From Thermoleophilum album (GTDB lineage Bacteria; Actinomycetota; Thermoleophilia; Solirubrobacterales; Thermoleophilaceae): a stretch of 64,000 nt of DNA. Shown in pieces: positions 23,535 to 61,510 of the stretch. The stretch lies in NCBI RefSeq assembly GCF_900108055.1, contig NZ_FNWJ01000002.1:692382-756381 (forward strand), given 5' to 3'. Every line of letters starts with the position of its first letter. Position 1 is the first letter of the stretch. The translations under genes and the position numbers were made by a program. The notes beneath the pieces were generated by a model, which was given only the letters and a program-made list of their open reading frames with translations, did no database searches and was not told the DNA's origin.

Positions 23535-24878
23535 TCAACCTTCGATCGCGCGCTCGAGCCCGACCGAGCGCGACGCCTTGAGCAACACCACGTCTTCTGG
23601 TTGGGCGAGGTTGCGCAGCAGGCGTCCGGCCTCCTCGGGTGTCTCGCAAAGGTGCGCTTCACCCGCGAACCCCACCGCGTACTCGCGCGCTTCCTCGCCA
23701 ACGCAAACGAGCACGTCGACACCCGCGTCACGCGCATAGCGACCGATCTCGCGGTGCAGCTCAGGGGCCCGCGGTCCCAGCTCGGCCATCTTGCCGAGCA
23801 CCGCCAGGCGGCGGCCACCGGGTCGCCGCGCGAGGTTGTCGAGTGCCGCTCGCATCGACATTGGGTTGGCGTTGTAGCAGTCGAGGATCACGCGCACGCC
23901 ACCGTCGAGCGTTACGGTCTGTCCGCGCAACCGCGAGAACTCCGGTTCCACACGTCCTCGCGGCAGCACCCCGAGGGCGAGCGCGCAGGCCACCGCGCAG
24001 AGCGTGTTGGAGAGCTGGTGTGGCTCGTCGAAAGCGACCGGCAGACTGAGCACGCCGAACGGCAGTTGCAGCTCGAGCGAGCCGTCGCGCAGGCCGACCT
24101 GCTGCACGTCCCCGCCCGGCCCGAATGTGAGCGTCTCAAGATCATCCCGAAGATAGGGAGCGAGCAGCGGCTCGGCGACGGGCACCACCGCCGTCGCCCC
24201 CGGCTCGAGACCGCCGATCAGCTCGGCCTTGGCCCGCGCGATGCGCTCGACCGAACCGAGCAGCTCGAGATGCACGGGGCCGATGTTCACGATCGCGCCG
24301 ACTTGGGGGCGGGCGATCGCCACGAGCTCGGCGATCTGTCCCTCGCCACGCATCGCCATCTCCAGCACGAGGACCTCGCTGCCCGGCGGTGCCGCCAAGA
24401 CCGAGAGCGGCAAGCCGATCTCGGTGTTCAGGTTCTCGGGACTTGCGTGCACCGTCACGCCAGCAGCGCGCAGCAGCGCAGCGAGAATGTCCTTGGTCGA
24501 GGTCTTGCCGGTCGAACCGGTAATGCCGACCACGCGCGCGCCAAGGTGCTGCCGCCAGCTAGCGGCGAGTCGCTGCAGCGCCCGTAGCGGGTCGGGACTG
24601 ACGAGCACCACCTGGTCGGGCGCCGCGCGCTCCACGCAAGCCGGACTGTGCTGGGGCTCGACGAGGACGCCCCAGGCACCCGCAGCCAGCGCCGCCGGCG
24701 CGAACGCGCCGCCGTCGTGCCGCGCCCCGCGCAGCCCCACGAAGAGCGCACCGGGCCGCACCTCGCGGGAGTCGCAGACGGCGCACTTGAAGCGGTCGCG
24801 AGTGCCTGGACCGTGATGCAAGGCAGCGCCGGCGGCGCGGGCTACAGCCGCCGCGTCGAAGCGCCCTGAGCGCGTCAC
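23535..24878 (-). CDS. murF: UDP-MurNAc-tripeptide:D-Ala-D-Ala ligase
   Basis: Mur ligase that finishes the UDP-MurNAc-pentapeptide, 447 aa. GTG 24878 overlaps the murE stop (GTGA). Motifs are the ATP loop GITGSTGKTSTKDIL, SPENLNTEIGLPLSVL, EMAMRGEGQIAEL, NIGPVHLELLGS, and the C-terminal DCYNANPMSMRAAL and VLGKMAELG, all typical of MurF. The N-terminal domain carries CAVCDSREVRPGALFVGLRGARHDGG. Confidence 0.96.
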   Translation of the reverse strand: MTRSGRFDAAAVARAAGAALHHGPGTRDRFKCAVCDSREVRPGALFVGLRGARHDGGAFAPAALAAGAWGVLVEPQHSPACVERAAPDQVVLVSPDPLRALQRLAASWRQHLGARVVGITGSTGKTSTKDILAALLRAAGVTVHASPENLNTEIGLPLSVLAAPPGSEVLVLEMAMRGEGQIAELVAIARPQVGAIVNIGPVHLELLGSVERIARAKAELIGGLEPGATAVVPVAEPLLAPYLRDDLETLTFGPGGDVQQVGLRDGSLELQLPFGVLSLPVAFDEPHQLSNTLCAVACALALGVLPRGRVEPEFSRLRGQTVTLDGGVRVILDCYNANPMSMRAALDNLARRPGGRRLAVLGKMAELGPRAPELHREIGRYARDAGVDVLVCVGEEAREYAVGFAGEAHLCETPEEAGRLLRNLAQPEDVVLLKASRSVGLERAIEG

Positions 24879-26332
24879 GTCTGCGCCCCCAAGCGGGCAA
24901 GCAGCGCTGTGCGTGCGACCTCGCGGTCATCGAACGGCTCGATGCGCCCGTGCGCGAACTCTTGACCCTGCTCGTGCCCCTTGCCGGCGATCACCACCAG
25001 GTCACCGGGCTCCGCGGCGGCGATCGCCAGTTCGATCGCGCGCCGGCGATCGACCTCGCGGACGACCCCGTCGAAGCCGTCGATGCCGGCGACGATCTCG
25101 TCGATGATCGCCTCCGGATCCTCGCTGCGCGGGTTGTCCGAGGTCACCACTACGCGGTCGGCCAGCGCCGCCGCGATCCGTCCCATCTGCGGGCGCTTCC
25201 CGCGATCGCGATCACCACCACAGCCGAACACGCACCAAAGACGCCCCCGGCACAGTGGGCGGGCAGCCCGCAGCAGGCGCTCCAGCGAGTCGGGCGTGTG
25301 TGCGTAGTCGACGAGCACCCCGAACGGCTGACCCTCGTCAATCCGTTCGAAACGGCCGGGAACCGCTGGGAACGAGGCGAGCGCAGCGACCGCCTGCTCG
25401 AGCGGCACACCGAGCACGCGCACCGCTGCGAGCGCAGCAAGCGCGTTCTCGACGTTGAAGCGTCCGGGCAGCGGGAGCTCGCAGCGCAACCGCTGCTCCG
25501 GCGCCAGGAGCGTGAAACGCGCGCCGGAGAGGTCGAACTCGACGTCGACGGCGCGGAGCTCCGCGGGGCGATCGATCGCGAAGGTGACGGCGCCAGGCAG
25601 CTCGCGCGCCAGCCGCCGGCCCCACTCGTTGTCGATACCGACCACTGCCGGCCCCTCGTGCTCGACGAACAGCCGACGCTTGGCGGCGAAGTAGGCGTCC
25701 ATCGTGCCGTGAAAGTCGAGGTGGTCCTGAGTCAGGTTGGTGAAGACCTTGCAAGCGAAACGCGTGCCGCGCACGCGACCGAGCTCGAGCGCATGCGAGG
25801 AAACCTCCATCGCACAGGCTTGGTCGCCGGCAGCCACCATCCGCGCGAACGTTCGCTGCAGATCGAGCGACTCGGGAGTGGTGCGCTGCGCCGGCAGCTG
25901 CTCGCCTCCGATCACTTGGCAGACGGTTCCGAGCAGGCCGCAGCGGATCCCTGCCTCTTCGAGCAAGTGCCGGACCAGGAAGGTGGTGGTGGTCTTGCCG
26001 TTGGTGCCGGTGACACCGACGACGCGCAGGCGCGTGCTCGGGTCGCCGAAGAAGCGGGCGGCCATCAGCGCCATCGCAGTGCGCACATCGTCGACCAGCA
26101 CCTGGCTCACCGGTAGGTCGAGCCGGCGTTGGCAAACGAGCGCTGCGGCGCCGCGCGCAACCGCTTCCGGAGCGAAGTCATGGCCGTCAGCGCGCAGTCC
26201 GGGCACGCAGAAGAAGAGCGTCCCCCTTACCACGCGCCGTGAGTCGTAGGCGAGGTCGACGATCTCGACCGGCTCTTCGCCCCGAACGATCAGTTCGCGC
26301 GCGACCCCCTCTGCGAGCAGGCGGAGGTCCAT
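24875..26332 (-). CDS. murE: UDP-MurNAc-L-Ala-D-Glu:meso-diaminopimelate ligase
   Basis: Mur ligase adding the third residue, 485 aa from ATG 26332. The ATP loop is GVTGTNGKTTTTFLV; QRTTPESLDLQ, EVSSHALELGRV and NLTQDHLDFHGTMDAYF mark MurE. SDNPRSEDPEAI contains the DNPR motif that in known MurE enzymes selects meso-DAP, so the cell wall is predicted to be DAP type. It is the first gene of the murE-murG segment; its promoter must lie in the 80-bp divergent spacer shared with the GAF/GGDEF gene. Confidence 0.96.
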   Translation of the reverse strand: MDLRLLAEGVARELIVRGEEPVEIVDLAYDSRRVVRGTLFFCVPGLRADGHDFAPEAVARGAAALVCQRRLDLPVSQVLVDDVRTAMALMAARFFGDPSTRLRVVGVTGTNGKTTTTFLVRHLLEEAGIRCGLLGTVCQVIGGEQLPAQRTTPESLDLQRTFARMVAAGDQACAMEVSSHALELGRVRGTRFACKVFTNLTQDHLDFHGTMDAYFAAKRRLFVEHEGPAVVGIDNEWGRRLARELPGAVTFAIDRPAELRAVDVEFDLSGARFTLLAPEQRLRCELPLPGRFNVENALAALAAVRVLGVPLEQAVAALASFPAVPGRFERIDEGQPFGVLVDYAHTPDSLERLLRAARPLCRGRLWCVFGCGGDRDRGKRPQMGRIAAALADRVVVTSDNPRSEDPEAIIDEIVAGIDGFDGVVREVDRRRAIELAIAAAEPGDLVVIAGKGHEQGQEFAHGRIEPFDDREVARTALLARLGAQT

Positions 26333-26412
26333 GGTCGGCGCCAGTGTAGACGCGCCCCTGGTCGGCCCCGGAGGCCCCTCAAGGCGACGGCTCTGCTGCC
26401 GATATCGCCCCC

Positions 26413-27372
26413 ATGAGCGCCGCGGCGGTGACTGTCCTCGCACGCCTTGCCGAGCGCACCTACCAGAGCTTCTCGGAGGCGGCAGGCCAGGCCCTTCAGC
26501 TACTCGAGGAGACGCTCCCTCCTGGGGTGGTGGCGCTGGGACGCCTCGACGACGAGGAACGCGTTTACAGAATCCTCGACGTGCGCGGCGAGGCCGGCGA
26601 AGCGTTGGGCCGCGGCACCGTGCTACCGCTGCCGCGCGCCGGCCCCGACCCGGACCCGGAGTTACTCGACGCGCTCGCGATCCGTAGCTGGCTCGCCGTG
26701 CCGCTGCTCGCCAGCAACGGCGACATGCTCGGTGCGGTGTGGGCCCTGAGCGGCGAGGAGGCCGCCTACTCGGAGGAGGACTGGGCGCTGGTAGCGGTCT
26801 GCGCGCGTCTTTTGGCCGCCGAATGGGAGGGCGTGCAGCTACGCGCGGATCTGCGGCGGCTGCGCGAGCAGCTACGCGATCGGGACCGCACCGATCACGT
26901 CACCGGCCTACCGAACCGCCAGAGCTTCCTCGAGGCGCTGGAACGCGAGTGGCGCCTGTGCAAACGCGGGGCCGTCGAGTCGCACATGGTCGTGCTGAAG
27001 ATTCCGAACCTCGCGGATATCCGACAGCGCTACGGCGAGGCGATGGCGACCTTGATGCTCAAGGACGTGGCGGAGGCGTTGCAGGCGGTCGCGCGCAAAA
27101 CCGACCACACGGGCCGGCTCGACGAGGAGCTGATGGGCGTGATCCTCGTCGGCTGCAAGGGGCACGAGGGAGCCGAAGCGTTCGTATCGCGACTGTGCTC
27201 GCGGATCGAGCACGTATCGCGCGAGCGACCCGAGGTGCCAAGTCCCGTCTTCGGTTTCAGTCCGCTTGGCGGGATCGACGAGCCGGGCGCCGTGCTCGAG
27301 GCCGCGCAGGCCGACTTGGAGGCGTCGAGCGCGACGCTTGCGGCGGAAGCAACCCCAGGGGTAACCTCGTGA
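26413..27372 (+). CDS. GAF domain plus degenerate GGDEF domain protein
   Basis: A 319-aa soluble protein from ATG 26413. Residues ~20-140 look like a GAF sensor domain (VVALGRLDDEERVYRIL, SWLAVPLLASNGDMLGAVWALSGEEAAYSEEDWALVAVCARLLA). Then comes a helical linker and a diguanylate-cyclase fold at ~157-305 (RTDHVTGLPNRQSFLEAL). The catalytic signature GGDEF is replaced by DEELMG (237-242), and the metal-binding Asp segment reads LKIPNLADIRQRYG, so c-di-GMP synthesis is very unlikely; a binding or regulatory role is more likely. It is followed after 1 nt by the MshEN/coiled-coil gene, and both are inserted against the direction of the dcw cluster. Confidence 0.75.
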   Translation: MSAAAVTVLARLAERTYQSFSEAAGQALQLLEETLPPGVVALGRLDDEERVYRILDVRGEAGEALGRGTVLPLPRAGPDPDPELLDALAIRSWLAVPLLASNGDMLGAVWALSGEEAAYSEEDWALVAVCARLLAAEWEGVQLRADLRRLREQLRDRDRTDHVTGLPNRQSFLEALEREWRLCKRGAVESHMVVLKIPNLADIRQRYGEAMATLMLKDVAEALQAVARKTDHTGRLDEELMGVILVGCKGHEGAEAFVSRLCSRIEHVSRERPEVPSPVFGFSPLGGIDEPGAVLEAAQADLEASSATLAAEATPGVTS

Positions 27373-27373
27373 G

Positions 27374-29074
27374 GTGGACGTGGTGGGGGCCGAACAGCGC
27401 ACGGCGACCGGCGACCTAGCGACCGGCGCCGGCGGGCCCCGCAAGGGCGTGTACCCGCCGTCGACGCCGGGTGGTCGCTACACCTTCCTGAGCGACGTGA
27501 TCGTCGAGCTCGGCTTCGCCGATCGCGACACCGTCGAGCAAGCGGTCGAGGCGGCACGTGTACCGGGTCGCACGCTCCAGCAGATCTTGCTGGAGCAAGG
27601 CACCATCACCGAGGAGCAGCTGGCGCGCGCGATCGGGGAACGCTACGGCCTCGACTACATCGACCTCGACGAGTTCGAGGTCGACCTCGGTGCCGCCAAC
27701 CTGATCAGCACTTCGACGGCGCTCCGCTACCACGCGGTGCCGGTGGCTTTCGACCCCGACGGCACGCTCGTGGTGGCGATGACCGACCCCGCCGACACGC
27801 TTGCGATCGACGACATCGCGGTGATGACGAAGCTCGAGGTACGGCCCGCGGTCGCCACCCGCAGCGGCATCGAGGCGCTGATCGAACGCTTGCCGCGCGC
27901 CGGCGAGCAGGAGCGGCCTGCGAACACCCGCGAGAGCGCGGCACCGACCCCCCAGATCGGCTCGCGGCCCGGCGCGGTACCGACGCGTCCGGCCGCGACG
28001 ACCCCGCCGGTCGCTCCGTCGACACCGCCATCGAGCCCCGCCCCGGTCGACGACGCCCAGCTCGCGGAACTGCGCGCAGAGCTCGAGCGACTCCAGGAAG
28101 AGCTGGAGGAGGCGCGCAGCGAGGCCGAGCGGACGCGCGGCGAGCTCGAACAGGCGCGCTCAGAGGCCGAGGAGGCGAACGCCGAGCTCGAGCGCCTGCG
28201 CGAAGAGAGCGGACGCGCCGGAGCCGAACGTGAGCGTCTTGCCGAACTCGAAGCGCGCGGCGGCGAGCTGGCCGTCGAGCTTGAGCGCATGCGCGGTGAG
28301 CTTGAGCGCACACGCGGTGAGCTCGAGATCGCCCGCGCCGAGCTGGAGACCAAGCGCGCCGAGGGTGACCGTTTGCGCGCCGAGATGGACCGGTTGCGCG
28401 AGGAGGCCGGGGCCGCGCGGGGCGAGGCGGAGGCGGCACAAGCGGAGATCGCGACGCTGCGGGCGCGAGTTGCCGAGCTCGAGGGCCTGGCGGCCCGCAG
28501 CGAGGAGCTCGAAACCGACCTCCAGCAGTTGCGCGCCGAGAACGAGCGCCTGCGGGGCGAGATCGAGGCGCTACGCGAAGGACGCGACCAGGAACTCGAG
28601 CAGGCGCGGGCGGAGCTCGAACGGGCGCGGGAAGAGGCCGACCGCCGGGCACTCGGAGCGGAGCGCGCGCTCGAGCAGGCGCGCAAACGCCTGCTCGAAC
28701 TCGAGGAAGCGGATCAGCGCGCCGAGCGCGCGCGGGCGACGCTCGCGAAGATGCGCGAGGAGTTCGAGCGGGAGCGCGAGCACCAGGCCCGCACCGAGCG
28801 CTATCTGCGTGCCACGGTGGCTTCCGAACGAGCGCGCCGCGAGGCGCTGGAAGCGCTGCTCGACCGGGTGCGCAGCGCCGGTGCTGAGCTCCAGGCGGTG
28901 CTCGACGCGCTCGCGCAGCTGCCCGACCCGACGAGCGATAGCTCCGAGCGCGCTAGCGGCAGCGCCGAGCCTGGCGGCCGTCCGGCGGGCGCTCCCTCGC
29001 AAGCGCCCGACGCCGATCCGGCGGGCGACGAGAGCGCCGGCGAGGGTGGCAAAGCGCCGCCGATCTGGCGGTAG
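27374..29074 (+). CDS. MshEN (type II secretion ATPase N-terminal) domain fused to a long coiled coil
   Basis: A 566-aa protein, GTG start 27374, one base after the previous stop. Residues ~35-172 match the MshEN/GspE-N domain: a first helix pair DVIVELGFADRDTVEQAVEAA, a second RTLQQILLEQGTITEEQLARAI (66-87), then GLDYIDLDEFEVD and VPVAFDPDGTLVVAMTDPADTLAIDDI. There is no ATPase domain. A Pro/Ser/Ala-rich linker (~178-226) leads into an almost uninterrupted charged coiled coil (~227-520), then a disordered acidic tail ending PPIWR. MshEN domains bind c-di-GMP through RLG-x repeats; here the first repeat has lost RLG and the second keeps only its Arg. It may be a cytoskeletal or divisome-linked scaffold; function is not known. 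Confidence 0.7.
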   Translation: MDVVGAEQRTATGDLATGAGGPRKGVYPPSTPGGRYTFLSDVIVELGFADRDTVEQAVEAARVPGRTLQQILLEQGTITEEQLARAIGERYGLDYIDLDEFEVDLGAANLISTSTALRYHAVPVAFDPDGTLVVAMTDPADTLAIDDIAVMTKLEVRPAVATRSGIEALIERLPRAGEQERPANTRESAAPTPQIGSRPGAVPTRPAATTPPVAPSTPPSSPAPVDDAQLAELRAELERLQEELEEARSEAERTRGELEQARSEAEEANAELERLREESGRAGAERERLAELEARGGELAVELERMRGELERTRGELEIARAELETKRAEGDRLRAEMDRLREEAGAARGEAEAAQAEIATLRARVAELEGLAARSEELETDLQQLRAENERLRGEIEALREGRDQELEQARAELERAREEADRRALGAERALEQARKRLLELEEADQRAERARATLAKMREEFEREREHQARTERYLRATVASERARREALEALLDRVRSAGAELQAVLDALAQLPDPTSDSSERASGSAEPGGRPAGAPSQAPDADPAGDESAGEGGKAPPIWR

Positions 29075-29105
29075 CGCCGCTGGCGACAGCGCAGCCCTAA
29101 CCGTC

Positions 29106-30800
29106 TCATGAGGGCGGGATGCCGAGATACGGCAGCGCGAACGAGACGATGCGCTCGAAAGCGGGCGCGGCGACGGCGCCGCCGTAGATCTCGCCCTTCG
29201 GTTCGTCGACCGCGACGAGCACCAACAGTCGCGGCTTGCCGACCGGCGCGAAGCCGACGAACGACGCGACGTAGCGACTGTGCGAGTAGGTGCCGGTGAG
29301 GGGATCGGGTTTTTGCGAGGTGCCGGTCTTGCCGGCAATCCGGTAGCCCGGGATCTGCGCCTCCGAGCCCGTACCGCTGGGGCCGACCACGCCCTCGAGC
29401 ATGCGCGCGACGGTGTCGGCAACCTCCGGCGTGAGCACGCGGCGTCCGGGCTTGCGGCGCCCGGCGAGCACATAGGGCTCGTGCATGACCCCGTGGTTGG
29501 CGAGGGCGGTGTAAGCAGCGAGCAGCTGCAAGGGGGTGATCGCGAGCCCCTGCCCGATCGGAAGGTTGCCGATCGACGATCCCGAGTACTCGCGCAAGCG
29601 CGGAACGATCCCTGGCGACTCGCCAGGCAGACCGATGCCCGTCGGGCGCCCGAAGGCGAAGCGGCCCATCCAGCGGTCGAAGCGCCGCGCTCCCAGGCGC
29701 AGGGCGATCGTCACAGTGCCGACGTTCGACGATCGCGCAAGGATGTCGGCGACGCTCATCCGCTCCCAGCCGCGCGGGTGCGCCTCGCCGATCACGCGGT
29801 CGGCGACGCGAATCGTCGGCGGCAGATCGAAGCTGTCGAGCGGCGAGATCACGCCCTCCGAGAGGGCGGCGGCAACAGTGAAGGGCTTGAACGTCGAACC
29901 CGGCTCGTAGGTGTCCTGGACAGCACGGTTGCGCCGCACCTCTGGGCCGAGCTCGAGGCTGCGTTCGGGGGAGGCGGTCGGCCAGTTGGCGAGTGCCAGC
30001 ACCGCGCCGTCGCGTGGGTCGACGACGACGGCGGTGGCGCCGCGGGCCGCGTAGCGCTCGCCGGTGTCGGCGAGCACGCGCTCGACCTGCCGCTGAAGGA
30101 CCGCGTCGATCGTCAGTCGCAGGGTCTTGCCCGCACGGGGACGGGCGAGGGTGATCGTGCGCAGCGGCTGACCGAGAGCGTCGCGCACGACCTGCCGTGC
30201 ACCGTCGCGGCCGCGCAGCCAGCGATCGGCGGCCTGCTCGAGTCCGAACAAGCCGTAGCCGTCGGTACCTACCGCGCCCAGAAGCTGTGTCGCTAGGGCA
30301 CCCTGGGGATAGACGCGGCGGGGTTCCGGCAGGGTGCCGACGCCCTCGATCCGCAACCGCCGCAGCCGCTCGCCGAGTTCCGGCGCCAGCCGCCGGCGCA
30401 GGTACACGAAACCGCGCTTGCGATCGGCGATCCGGGCGAGGATCTCCTGCTCTGACATGCGCAGGAGTGGTGCGAGGCGGGCCGCTACCGCTGCCGGCCG
30501 ATTGATCAAGAACGGGTTCGCGTAGACGGTAACGGCCTCCTCCGAAACGGCCAGCTCGCGCCCGCGGCGATCGAGGATCGGCCCGCGTAGGCCCGGCTCG
30601 ACTACCCGCGCGTCGTGTTGCAGCTGGGCCTGAGCTCGCAGCGCGCCGGCGCGCACGGTCGTCAGCCATACCGCCCGCGCGGCGACTACGGCGAAGACGC
30701 ACAGGAACGCGGCGAACAGGACACCGATGCGGCGGTCGGTGCGGCTGACCGGTCGCCGCCGGATCAGCACGCGACGGCGCTTGCCGTTACGGCTGCCCAT
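29106..30800 (-). CDS. ftsI: Septal peptidoglycan transpeptidase FtsI (PBP2b/3 class)
   Basis: Class B penicillin-binding protein, 564 aa from ATG 30800. One membrane helix (~24-43) follows a basic N terminus. Transpeptidase motifs are S302-TFK305 in EPGSTFKPF, SSN at 357-359, and KTGT at 491-494. The pedestal domain shows GLRGPILDRRGRELAVS. No PASTA domain follows the catalytic domain, which ends FALPYLGIPPS. The start overlaps the ftsL end by 14 nt. It is convergent with the coiled-coil gene, 31 nt apart. Confidence 0.96.
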   Translation of the reverse strand: MGSRNGKRRRVLIRRRPVSRTDRRIGVLFAAFLCVFAVVAARAVWLTTVRAGALRAQAQLQHDARVVEPGLRGPILDRRGRELAVSEEAVTVYANPFLINRPAAVAARLAPLLRMSEQEILARIADRKRGFVYLRRRLAPELGERLRRLRIEGVGTLPEPRRVYPQGALATQLLGAVGTDGYGLFGLEQAADRWLRGRDGARQVVRDALGQPLRTITLARPRAGKTLRLTIDAVLQRQVERVLADTGERYAARGATAVVVDPRDGAVLALANWPTASPERSLELGPEVRRNRAVQDTYEPGSTFKPFTVAAALSEGVISPLDSFDLPPTIRVADRVIGEAHPRGWERMSVADILARSSNVGTVTIALRLGARRFDRWMGRFAFGRPTGIGLPGESPGIVPRLREYSGSSIGNLPIGQGLAITPLQLLAAYTALANHGVMHEPYVLAGRRKPGRRVLTPEVADTVARMLEGVVGPSGTGSEAQIPGYRIAGKTGTSQKPDPLTGTYSHSRYVASFVGFAPVGKPRLLVLVAVDEPKGEIYGGAVAAPAFERIVSFALPYLGIPPS

Positions 30801-31467
30801 CCAGCGTGGGGACTGCTGACACGCCGGCCGTCGACACTTCCCCCGGAGCGGGGATCCGAGACGCCGCACGCTCGCCGAGGCGTTGGGCAGCGATACGCAC
30901 GTCTGAGCTCGACTGGGGATGCAGATAGCGGACGGCATCCGGGGCCGGCAAGACGAAGCCCTGGCGCTGTGCTAGTTGCTGGATGCGATCCGCGGCCTCG
31001 AGCCTCGCCAGTTCCCTGCGCAAGCGTGCGTTGTCGGCCTCTACTTGGCCGCGGCGTTCGGAGATCGCGGCGAGCCGCCGGTTGAGTTGCAAGAGATCGA
31101 CGTTCAGGAACACGATGCCGACCAGGAGGGCAGCGACCAGCCAGATCCACAGTCGTGCGCGCAGCAGGCGGTCGATCAGCGCCGCGGCGGCCGCCGATCC
31201 GCGCGAGCGCCGGGCGCGAGCGGTCGTTCGCGCACGCACGCGGCGCCGCCGTGGGACCTGCTGAGGGCGGGTGCGGGGGCGCCGGGGCGCCGGCGCCACC
31301 GTCGGTTCGCGCAGCGGCCGGCGGGCGGGAGCAGCTGGCGTCGGCGCTGTCGCCGCCGCTCGGGCGGCCGCGCCCCTGACCGCGCGCTGCCGCCGCGGGC
31401 GCGGCGTCGGGCGCTCGACGTCCGCGACCAGGGCGCGTGCCGCGACCGTTGCCGCGCGCGGGCTCAC
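30787..31467 (-). CDS. ftsL: FtsL-like cell division protein with long basic N terminus
   Basis: A 226-aa bitopic protein in the ftsL position between rsmH and ftsI. GTG 31467 overlaps the rsmH stop (GTGA). The first ~120 residues are Arg/Pro/Ala-rich and probably disordered in the cytoplasm. One membrane helix (LWIWLVAALLVGIVFLNVDLL) is followed by a short coiled coil (LNRRLAAISERRGQVEADNARLRRELARLEAADRIQQLAQRQGFVLP), the usual FtsL/DivIC periplasmic architecture. Identity rests on position and architecture more than on sequence motifs. Confidence 0.8.
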   Translation of the reverse strand: MSPRAATVAARALVADVERPTPRPRRQRAVRGAAARAAATAPTPAAPARRPLREPTVAPAPRRPRTRPQQVPRRRRVRARTTARARRSRGSAAAAALIDRLLRARLWIWLVAALLVGIVFLNVDLLQLNRRLAAISERRGQVEADNARLRRELARLEAADRIQQLAQRQGFVLPAPDAVRYLHPQSSSDVRIAAQRLGERAASRIPAPGEVSTAGVSAVPTLDGQP

Positions 31468-60319: not shown

Positions 60320-61375
60320 TCAGCCGGTGTCCGTAAGCACTGCAGTACGCGCGATTTCGCCGAGACGCACTCGCGCGCGCCCCGCCCGCTTGGCCGCATA
60401 AAGCGCGCGATCGGCCGCCTCGAACAGCTGGTCGCGACTCGGGAGGGGAGGCGTGGCGGCGGCGACGCCGGCGCTCACCGTGAGCGGAGCCTCGCGGTCG
60501 CCCGCACGCTGCCGCTCGACGACGCGCTCAGCGAACGCAAGCGCCGCGTTGGCGTCGGCGTCGTAGAGGATCGCGGCGAACTCCTCGCCGCCGATCCGCG
60601 CCAGCACGTCGCCGCGACGGGCGCTGCGCCGCAAGAGCTTCGCGAAGGCGACCAGCGCACGATCGCCCGCCGCATGCCCGTGGGTGTCGTTCAGCTGCTT
60701 GAAGTGGTCGAGGTCGAAGACGACGAGCGCGACCGGCGCCCCCGTACGGGCCGCCCTCGCCAGCTCGCGTTCTAGCGCTTCCTCGAAGCCACGCCGATTG
60801 ACGAGGCCGGTGAGCGGGTCGGTGATCGCGCTGTGCCGGAGGTGGCCGACGAGCTCGGAAACCCGTTCGCGCAGGAACACCACCACCGCCACGGCGACGG
60901 AGATCGTGATCACCGTGTCCATGAACAGGATCGCGCGCATCTCGACGTCCGGCCGCAACGCCAACGCGATGCCGAACGCCGTCCAAGCCAGCGCGAGCAT
61001 CGCCAACACCCAGCGACGGCCGACGAAATAGGCACCGAAGAGGAGCGGCCAAAGGTAGAAAGACGGAGTACCGGAGATCGGCTTCGCGACATAGACCGCA
61101 GCGCTGACGAGCCCGATCCCGTAGACCACGATCGCCGCCAGACCCTCGAGGCGCCCGAGCCATATCACTGCCGCGCCCAGCACCGCGAGCGCCGCGATCA
61201 CCCGAAAACCGGTGTGATCGCTGGGATCGACATCGGGTGCCGCGAGGACCAGCATCACCGTGACGGCCCCGGCAAGGAACATCACGGCGGCGATCGTGCG
61301 AGCGAGGCGCGCTTCCTCGAAGCCGGGGGTGGCCGCCCCGGCGGGGGTGCGCGCGCTGCGGCCGAGCCTTTTCAT
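60320..61375 (-). CDS. Membrane-bound diguanylate cyclase (GGEEF)
   Basis: A 351-aa protein from ATG 61375. The N-terminal ~170 residues hold about six membrane helices (AAVMFLAGAVTVMLVLAA through ITISVAVAVVVFLRE), a MASE-like sensor. The GGDEF domain (~182-345) is complete: DPLTGLVNRRGFEEALE, metal Asp in VVFDLDHFKQLND, active site GGEEF (262-266), and the inhibitory I-site RRGD (253-256) five residues before it. It should make c-di-GMP under product inhibition. It is the only intact c-di-GMP synthase in the window and a natural counterpart to the degenerate GGDEF/MshEN pair. Confidence 0.92.
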   Translation of the reverse strand: MKRLGRSARTPAGAATPGFEEARLARTIAAVMFLAGAVTVMLVLAAPDVDPSDHTGFRVIAALAVLGAAVIWLGRLEGLAAIVVYGIGLVSAAVYVAKPISGTPSFYLWPLLFGAYFVGRRWVLAMLALAWTAFGIALALRPDVEMRAILFMDTVITISVAVAVVVFLRERVSELVGHLRHSAITDPLTGLVNRRGFEEALERELARAARTGAPVALVVFDLDHFKQLNDTHGHAAGDRALVAFAKLLRRSARRGDVLARIGGEEFAAILYDADANAALAFAERVVERQRAGDREAPLTVSAGVAAATPPLPSRDQLFEAADRALYAAKRAGRARVRLGEIARTAVLTDTG

Positions 61376-61510
61376 CGTCCCCGCGGCCTTTCGGTTGCTA
61401 TCGGACGCCGGCGGCGGATCTTTACTGCGTGCATTCCACCAGCCTCCGCCCTCGGCCGCCGATGCTAGTGCTGGGCCGCACAGGCAGGCAAGCAAGGGAC
61501 GAGGCTCGAG

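What the first reader, a model, noticed from the sequence alone, without database searches (positions are those of the whole stretch)
26413..29074. GAF/degenerate-GGDEF plus MshEN/coiled-coil gene pair embedded in the dcw cluster
Two coupled plus-strand genes (1 nt apart) interrupt the minus-strand division cluster between ftsI and murE. The first has a GAF domain and a GGDEF domain whose active site is DEELMG and whose metal Asp is lost. The second pairs an MshEN-type domain, known elsewhere as a c-di-GMP receiver on secretion ATPases, with ~290 residues of coiled coil and no ATPase. An intact I-site-bearing cyclase (60320-61375) is nearby. This suggests a nucleotide-sensing scaffold acting on septum or envelope synthesis, which I have not seen described.
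Basis: partly seen in the sequence, partly recalled or inferred. Interest (0 to 1): 0.75.

Follow-up and report, generated by a model that had tools for sequence, protein, structure and literature searches.

The report
Pseudo-cyclase and pilus-motor-head adaptor pair
Two linked genes sit in the cell-division gene cluster of a small group of actinobacteria: one encodes a dead signal-making enzyme that probably still senses the signal c-di-GMP, the other a piece of a pilus motor that lost its engine and gained a long rod, and together they look like a little-known signalling adaptor rather than a proven part of cell division.

Summary
A (26413-27372; GAF + GGDEF with dead active site DEELM) and B (27374-29074; MshEN domain + ~290-residue heptad coiled coil, no ATPase) lie on the plus strand between ftsI and murE. 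Both are under strong purifying selection (dN/dS 0.12 for A and for B's MshEN, below murE 0.21).

The interpretation needs turning round. B's MshEN domain has lost all six conserved Arg/Gly/Gln ligand positions of the published c-di-GMP motif and scores below NCBI's cut-off for it; the same loss is widespread in pilus ATPases of this order. A, by contrast, keeps the I-site RxxD and a third Arg at the spacing of known degenerate-GGDEF c-di-GMP receptors. So A is the likely receptor and B the adaptor.

B proteins form one clade, apart from PilB-type ATPases. The conserved unit is A-B, not its place: all three genomes of the genus have it in dcw, but two other genera have A-B elsewhere, one genome has B alone between ftsI and murE, and 16 family members have ftsI-murE directly adjacent. 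A septum role is unproven; a c-di-GMP-read adaptor, most likely touching the type IV pilus machine, fits best. New variant of known kinds.

The parts
26413..27372 (+). gene A: GAF + pseudo-GGDEF protein, 319 aa
   Evidence: dN/dS 0.115-0.119 within the genus
26470..26823 (+). A: GAF domain (about residues 20-137)
   Evidence: PF01590; AlphaFold model with pLDDT mostly 75-88 over this part
26773..26889 (+). A: long signalling helix joining GAF to GGDEF (residues 121-159)
   Evidence: AlphaFold model
26890..27321 (+). A: degenerate GGDEF domain (about residues 160-303)
   Evidence: PF00990; Foldseek hits to WspR, DgcB, PleD, FimX GGDEF domains
27121..27135 (+). A: dead active site DEELM (residues 237-241)
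   Evidence: alignment; GEDVF in G018, GEATV in G053
27094..27105 (+). A: retained I-site R228-K-T-D231, five residues before the dead active site
   Evidence: RRSD in G018, RATD in G053
27190..27192 (+). A: candidate third I-site arginine R260 (RxxD Arg + 32)
   Evidence: invariant in A2; offset matches B. cereus PelD +32 (PMC7112168) and SgmT +31 (PMC3509222)
27374..29074 (+). gene B: ATPase-less MshEN + coiled-coil protein, 566 aa
27476..27649 (+). B: MshEN N-subdomain (residues 35-92), both c-di-GMP motifs degenerate
   Evidence: four helices, pLDDT mostly 76-92
27650..27907 (+). B: MshEN C-subdomain (residues 93-178)
   Evidence: PF05157; AlphaFold confidence low here
27908..28051 (+). 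B: Pro-rich linker (residues 179-226)
   Evidence: sequence; Pro-rich in all B homologues
28052..28933 (+). B: heptad coiled coil (residues 227-520)
   Evidence: period-3.5 test
28934..29071 (+). B: disordered-looking tail (residues 521-566)
   Evidence: sequence; ends PIWR / TIWR within the genus
26333..26412 (.). 80-nt divergent region between murE start and A start
   Evidence: no sigma-70-like consensus found
29075..29105 (.). 31-nt convergent gap between B stop and ftsI stop
   Evidence: no terminator found

Best explanation
A-B is a two-protein signalling adaptor. A is a catalytically dead GGDEF protein that reads c-di-GMP at its I-site and a second, unknown cue through its GAF domain (SgmT/PopA/PelD-like logic). 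B descends from the N-terminal head (MshEN, also called N1D or GSPII) of a type IV pilus assembly ATPase; it lost the motor and its own c-di-GMP pocket and gained a coiled coil, so it should form elongated oligomers that present several heads. A, made from the same coupled mRNA, binds B and switches or positions it by c-di-GMP level. The most likely target is the socket that normally takes PilB's head (PilM/PilC) or PilB itself, so B would control where or whether a pilus motor docks. Shown: domains, dead active site, kept I-site residues, loss of MshEN ligand residues, common origin of B proteins, coupling, purifying selection. Inferred: c-di-GMP binding by A, A-B contact, and the pilus target.
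For: I-site R228xxD231-x5-A-site spacing identical to SgmT (R763HPD...G772, PMC3509222) and kept in all paired As with a readable C-terminal half, while the active site decayed differently in three lineages: DEELM/DDELM, GEDVF, GEATV. R260 invariant. B's MshEN lost the R/G/Q ligand positions (0 of 6 in own B) and is below the NF053729 cut-off. B proteins form one clade, 100/99 support, among PilB-type MshEN domains (97/96). A and B stay adjacent in three genera in three different genomic settings. dN/dS A 0.12, B MshEN 0.12. Same genome has a T4P cluster with PilB, a PilT-like ATPase, PilC, pilin and prepilin peptidase and a rich c-di-GMP network: 18 full GGDEF matches plus one fragment, 3 EAL, 1 PilZ. 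Precedents: PilB N1D is the docking domain for PilZ/FimX and probably PilM (PMC11656802).
Against: 12 of 15 other GGDEF active sites read in this genome also carry RxxD, so keeping it may be inheritance plus fold constraint. No experiment shows A-B contact. The pair is not next to T4P genes in any genome seen, and most T4P-bearing relatives lack it. In G037, B exists without an adjacent A, and the A-like gene of that genome keeps an intact GGDEF.
Confidence: 0.42

Rival explanations
1. Septal or elongation scaffold: in this genus B is a coiled-coil scaffold (a DivIVA-like role) that gathers cell-wall enzymes, controlled through A, and its place between ftsI and murE reflects that role.
For: Present at exactly this place in all three genomes of the genus. 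B alone sits at the same place and orientation in G037, whose genus has the MurE closest to ours (69% identity); one common origin for the dcw-located Bs is not rejected (AU p 0.54). A and B-MshEN are more constrained than murE.
Against: A-B lies elsewhere in G018 and G053. G037's own congeners G031 and G055 have ftsI and murE adjacent. The junction takes other inserts too: a glycosyltransferase in G017, an acyl-CoA dehydrogenase next to murE in G063. The pair runs opposite to the dcw operon, so it is not co-transcribed with it.
Confidence: 0.2
2. B still senses a cyclic dinucleotide through its MshEN domain with an altered pocket.
For: Fold and size of MshEN kept; hydrophobic core Leu/Gly positions largely kept.
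Against: All Arg/Gly/Gln ligand positions changed to F/S/A/T/Q/R. Thermus PilF GSPII-A, with fewer changes, does not bind, and restoring only its consensus did not rescue it (PMC12002112). Below the curated cut-off.
Confidence: 0.08
3. A is a purely structural pseudo-enzyme: its GAF domain senses a small ligand and the dead GGDEF is only a dimerisation/contact surface for B; no nucleotide is involved.
For: Active site lost in all paired As; RxxD is common in this genome and could be a leftover.
Against: R228, D231 and R260 stay invariant at 36-39% overall identity.
Confidence: 0.22
4. Recent insertion of no special function, kept by chance.
For: Patchy distribution: 5 genomes with the complete pair seen among the 232 of the order.
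Against: dN/dS 0.12-0.17 at dS about 0.8, and a single origin of B across two families.
Confidence: 0.03

Closest known systems
SgmT of Myxococcus xanthus (and PopA of Caulobacter)
   Same: GGDEF domain with degenerate active site and intact RxxD I-site at the same spacing acting as c-di-GMP receptor; SgmT also has a GAF domain (PMC3509222)
   Different: SgmT is a histidine kinase and PopA a response regulator; A has only GAF + GGDEF and is coupled to B
PelD
   Same: GAF + degenerate GGDEF binding c-di-GMP by RxxD plus a distal Arg (+32 in B. cereus, as R260 here) (PMC7112168)
   Different: PelD is membrane-bound and part of exopolysaccharide synthesis; A has no membrane segment and no pel-type neighbours
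PilB/MshE/GspE assembly ATPases (MshEN/N1D/GSPII head)
   Same: B's head is homologous, up to 59% identical to MshEN heads of PilB-type ATPases of the same order
   Different: B has no N2/CTD ATPase (no Walker A) and ends in a coiled coil; ligand residues lost
Thermus PilF GSPII-A
   Same: MshEN-fold domain with degenerate motifs; shown not to bind c-di-GMP (PMC12002112)
   Different: Part of a three-GSPII ATPase, not stand-alone
NfrB and other MshEN fusions without an ATPase
   Same: MshEN domains fused to glycosyltransferase, REC, HD-GYP, CheA and others are known (PMC5013675)
   Different: A coiled-coil fusion paired with a pseudo-GGDEF was not found in the papers searched
FimX-PilZ-PilB complex
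   Same: Degenerate GGDEF protein acting on a PilB N-terminal head (PMC11656802)
   Different: FimX senses through its EAL domain, A has none; B is not the motor

Membership tests
MshEN domain family (PF05157) | profile match over the curated cut-off and MshEN-like fold | tested here: met
   68.4 bits against 23.1; best PDB sequence hits PilF, PilB, MshE; Foldseek 5htl probability 1.00, though TM-scores are low because the C-subdomain model is poor
c-di-GMP-binding MshEN receptor | two RLGxx..Q 24-residue motifs | tested here: not met
   R9F, G11S, Q32A, R38T, G40Q, Q61R (MshE numbering) in B; NF053729 28.8 bits against 38
PilB/GspE assembly ATPase | T2SSE ATPase domain with Walker A | tested here: not met
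   no T2SSE hit, no GxxGxGK[ST]; TIGR02538 61.8 against 675.65
Active diguanylate cyclase | GG[DE]EF and metal Asp | tested here: not met
   DEELM; Asp positions K196/P198
Degenerate-GGDEF I-site c-di-GMP receptor (SgmT/PopA/PelD type) | degenerate A-site with RxxD five residues upstream | tested here: met
   R228KTD231-x5-D237EELM; spacing as SgmT
Degenerate-GGDEF I-site c-di-GMP receptor (SgmT/PopA/PelD type) | third I-site arginine | tested here: met
   R260, RxxD Arg + 32, invariant in paired As; assigned by offset, not by structure superposition
Degenerate-GGDEF I-site c-di-GMP receptor (SgmT/PopA/PelD type) | measured c-di-GMP binding | not testable with these tools
   needs ITC or DRaCALA
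dcw (division and cell wall) gene | conserved position in dcw across relatives, co-oriented | tested here: not met
   opposite strand; in dcw only in own genus and (B alone) G037; ftsI-murE adjacent in 16 family members
RsiG-type coiled-coil c-di-GMP binder | E(X)3S(X)2R(X)3Q(X)3D motif | tested here: not met
   no match in B (motif from PMC8325347)

The most novel reading that the evidence does not exclude
A c-di-GMP-read scaffold that evolved from a pilus motor head and was recruited, in one actinobacterial genus and its nearest kin, to organise cell-wall synthesis or division from within the dcw cluster, linking second-messenger level to septum or envelope growth.
Probability: 0.15. Interest if true: 0.78.

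Novelty: new variant of a known kind. Interest (0 to 1): 0.46.

Why it matters
It is a clear case of a motor's regulatory head being cut loose and rebuilt as a stand-alone coiled-coil protein, travelling with a dead cyclase that seems to keep the sensing job the head lost. If A binds c-di-GMP and B docks in the pilus socket (or at the septum), it would give deep-branching actinobacteria a post-translational c-di-GMP output beside the known RsiG-WhiG switch that controls pilus expression in Rubrobacter (PMC8325347). It also warns that an MshEN annotation does not mean c-di-GMP binding in this order: none of the 95 domains read keeps all six ligand residues.

Tried and rejected
B as c-di-GMP receptor: rejected on motif and curated cut-off. 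B's coil as RsiG-like binder: no motif. dcw conservation as proof of function: rejected by family-wide synteny. Chance ORFs or decay: rejected by dN/dS. Sigma-70 promoters or terminators around the pair: none found, uninformative at this G+C. AlphaFold of B residues 1-195: only the N-subdomain was confident, so fold comparison adds little beyond sequence there. Search for A outside the order: no hit at E 1e-35 beyond order members in 399 genomes of the class or 396 of the phylum; a pattern scan of 85k species genomes returned only HR41 and MohnsGC08_bin146 as strong hits, but it depends on two short peptide patterns, so absence there is weak evidence. Other MshEN proteins without a Walker A motif among 101 distinct ones read were contig-edge or frameshift cases, except the B clade; the list was itself cut off and covered 151 genomes, so further Bs may exist.

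Full report
OBSERVATION. The two plus-strand genes are real and placed as stated: A 26413-27372 and B 27374-29074, between murE (24875-26332, minus) and ftsI (29106-30938, minus). A has GAF and GGDEF domains; B has an MshEN domain and a coiled coil, with no ATPase domain. The heptad signal of the coil far exceeds shuffles. A AlphaFolds as GAF, long helix, GGDEF (mean pLDDT 83) and matches solved cyclases. B's N-subdomain folds as the four helices of MshEN and Foldseek ranks MshE and PilF GSPII first.

SELECTION. Between our genome and HR41 (G082), A has dN/dS 0.115, the MshEN part of B 0.117, the rest of B 0.19; murE has 0.21 and ftsI 0.15 (simple Nei-Gojobori estimates at dS about 0.6-1.0). 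The pair is under constraint at least as strong as its essential neighbours.

WHICH PROTEIN SENSES. The published MshEN motif needs R9, G11, Q32, R38, G40 and Q61 besides leucines (PMC5013675). By ungapped alignment, B has F38, S40, A61, T67, Q69 and R90 at these places. All six B proteins lack all of these, except one Gly in G018's B; of 95 MshEN domains read in this order, 70 have none of the six and none has all six. NCBI's model for the binding motif scores 28.8 bits, cut-off 38. Thermus PilF GSPII-A, with milder changes, does not bind, and restoring the consensus alone did not rescue it (PMC12002112). So sensing by B is unlikely. A has a dead active site, yet R228-K-T-D231 lies five residues before it, exactly as in SgmT (PMC3509222), and R260 sits at the offset of PelD's third arginine (PMC7112168). 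All three are invariant in the paired As, whose active sites read DEELM/DDELM, GEDVF and GEATV. Caution: RxxD is common among this genome's GGDEF domains (12 of 15 other active sites read), so its retention is suggestive, not proof.

ORIGIN AND DISTRIBUTION. The B proteins of four genera form one clade with 100/99 support, against PilB-type heads (97/96 on a smaller set). Adjacent A-B pairs were found in the three genomes of our genus, in G018 and in G053; G067 has A cut by a contig end at the same PAC2-gene locus as G018. G053 is Solirubrobacterales MAG MohnsGC08_bin146 and G082 is bacterium HR41. More distant A homologues in family f4 and in G037 keep GGDEF and have no B beside them. A was not seen outside the order at E 1e-35.

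POSITION. In our genus the pair splits ftsI from murE in all three genomes. In G037 a shorter B alone sits in the same place and orientation. Elsewhere in the family ftsI and murE lie within about 130 nt in 16 genomes, including G037's congeners G031 and G055 (G079's ftsI is split into two overlapping hits there). Other genomes of the order carry other inserts there: a family-2 glycosyltransferase in G017, an acyl-CoA dehydrogenase beside murE in G063. Whether the dcw position of B is ancestral to our genus and G037 or arose twice is unresolved; one clade is not rejected (AU p 0.54).

MECHANISM. I commit to a two-part adaptor: A reads c-di-GMP (about 0.6) and something else through GAF; B, a PilB head on a coiled rod, is its partner (about 0.75 that they bind, from conserved coupling); the target is most likely the type IV pilus socket or motor (about 0.5), because that is what the head docks to in pilus and secretion systems (PMC11656802) and the genome has a T4P cluster. 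I give about 0.4 to this reading as a whole when partial variants are allowed. The septal scaffold stays open at about 0.2.

KNOWN OR NEW. Both halves belong to known kinds: degenerate-GGDEF receptors and MshEN fusions without an ATPase. Their pairing, the coiled-coil fusion and the dcw insertion were not found described in the literature searched, which holds open-licence papers only. Hence: new variant of a known kind, moderate interest.

Noticed in passing
95 MshEN domains of the order: PilB-type ATPases across this actinobacterial order have largely lost the c-di-GMP motif: 88 of 89 have Arg where MshE has Q61, and 70 of 95 domains keep none of six key residues.
   Followed up: partly
L126:469-1476 (G017) and L129:2965-4422 (G063): The ftsI-murE junction carries other genes in other lineages: a family-2 glycosyltransferase in G017 and an AidB-like acyl-CoA dehydrogenase beside murE in G063, so it seems an insertion-tolerant point in dcw.
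   Followed up: partly
L220:3037-3885 (G006): In G006 and G061 no ftsI was found within 1.5 kb upstream of murE; in G006 a WD40-like PD40 protein lies there instead. Possible break of the dcw cluster in that genus.
   Followed up: no
G000 whole genome: About 18 GGDEF domains, 3 EAL and 1 PilZ in a 2.2 Mb genome: a dense c-di-GMP network for its size.
   Followed up: partly
L134 (G000:C2:285000-303000): Type IV pilus cluster with PilB, a PilT-like ATPase, PilC, pilin, prepilin peptidase and a likely PilM in the same genome.
   Followed up: partly
60320-61495: Membrane-type diguanylate cyclase with intact GGEEF and RRGD I-site; ordinary among this genome's cyclases.
   Followed up: partly
L068-L072 (family f4, genus g19): GAF-GGDEF proteins about 32% identical to A keep an intact GGDEF and have no B beside them; they look like the active cousins of A.
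   Followed up: partly
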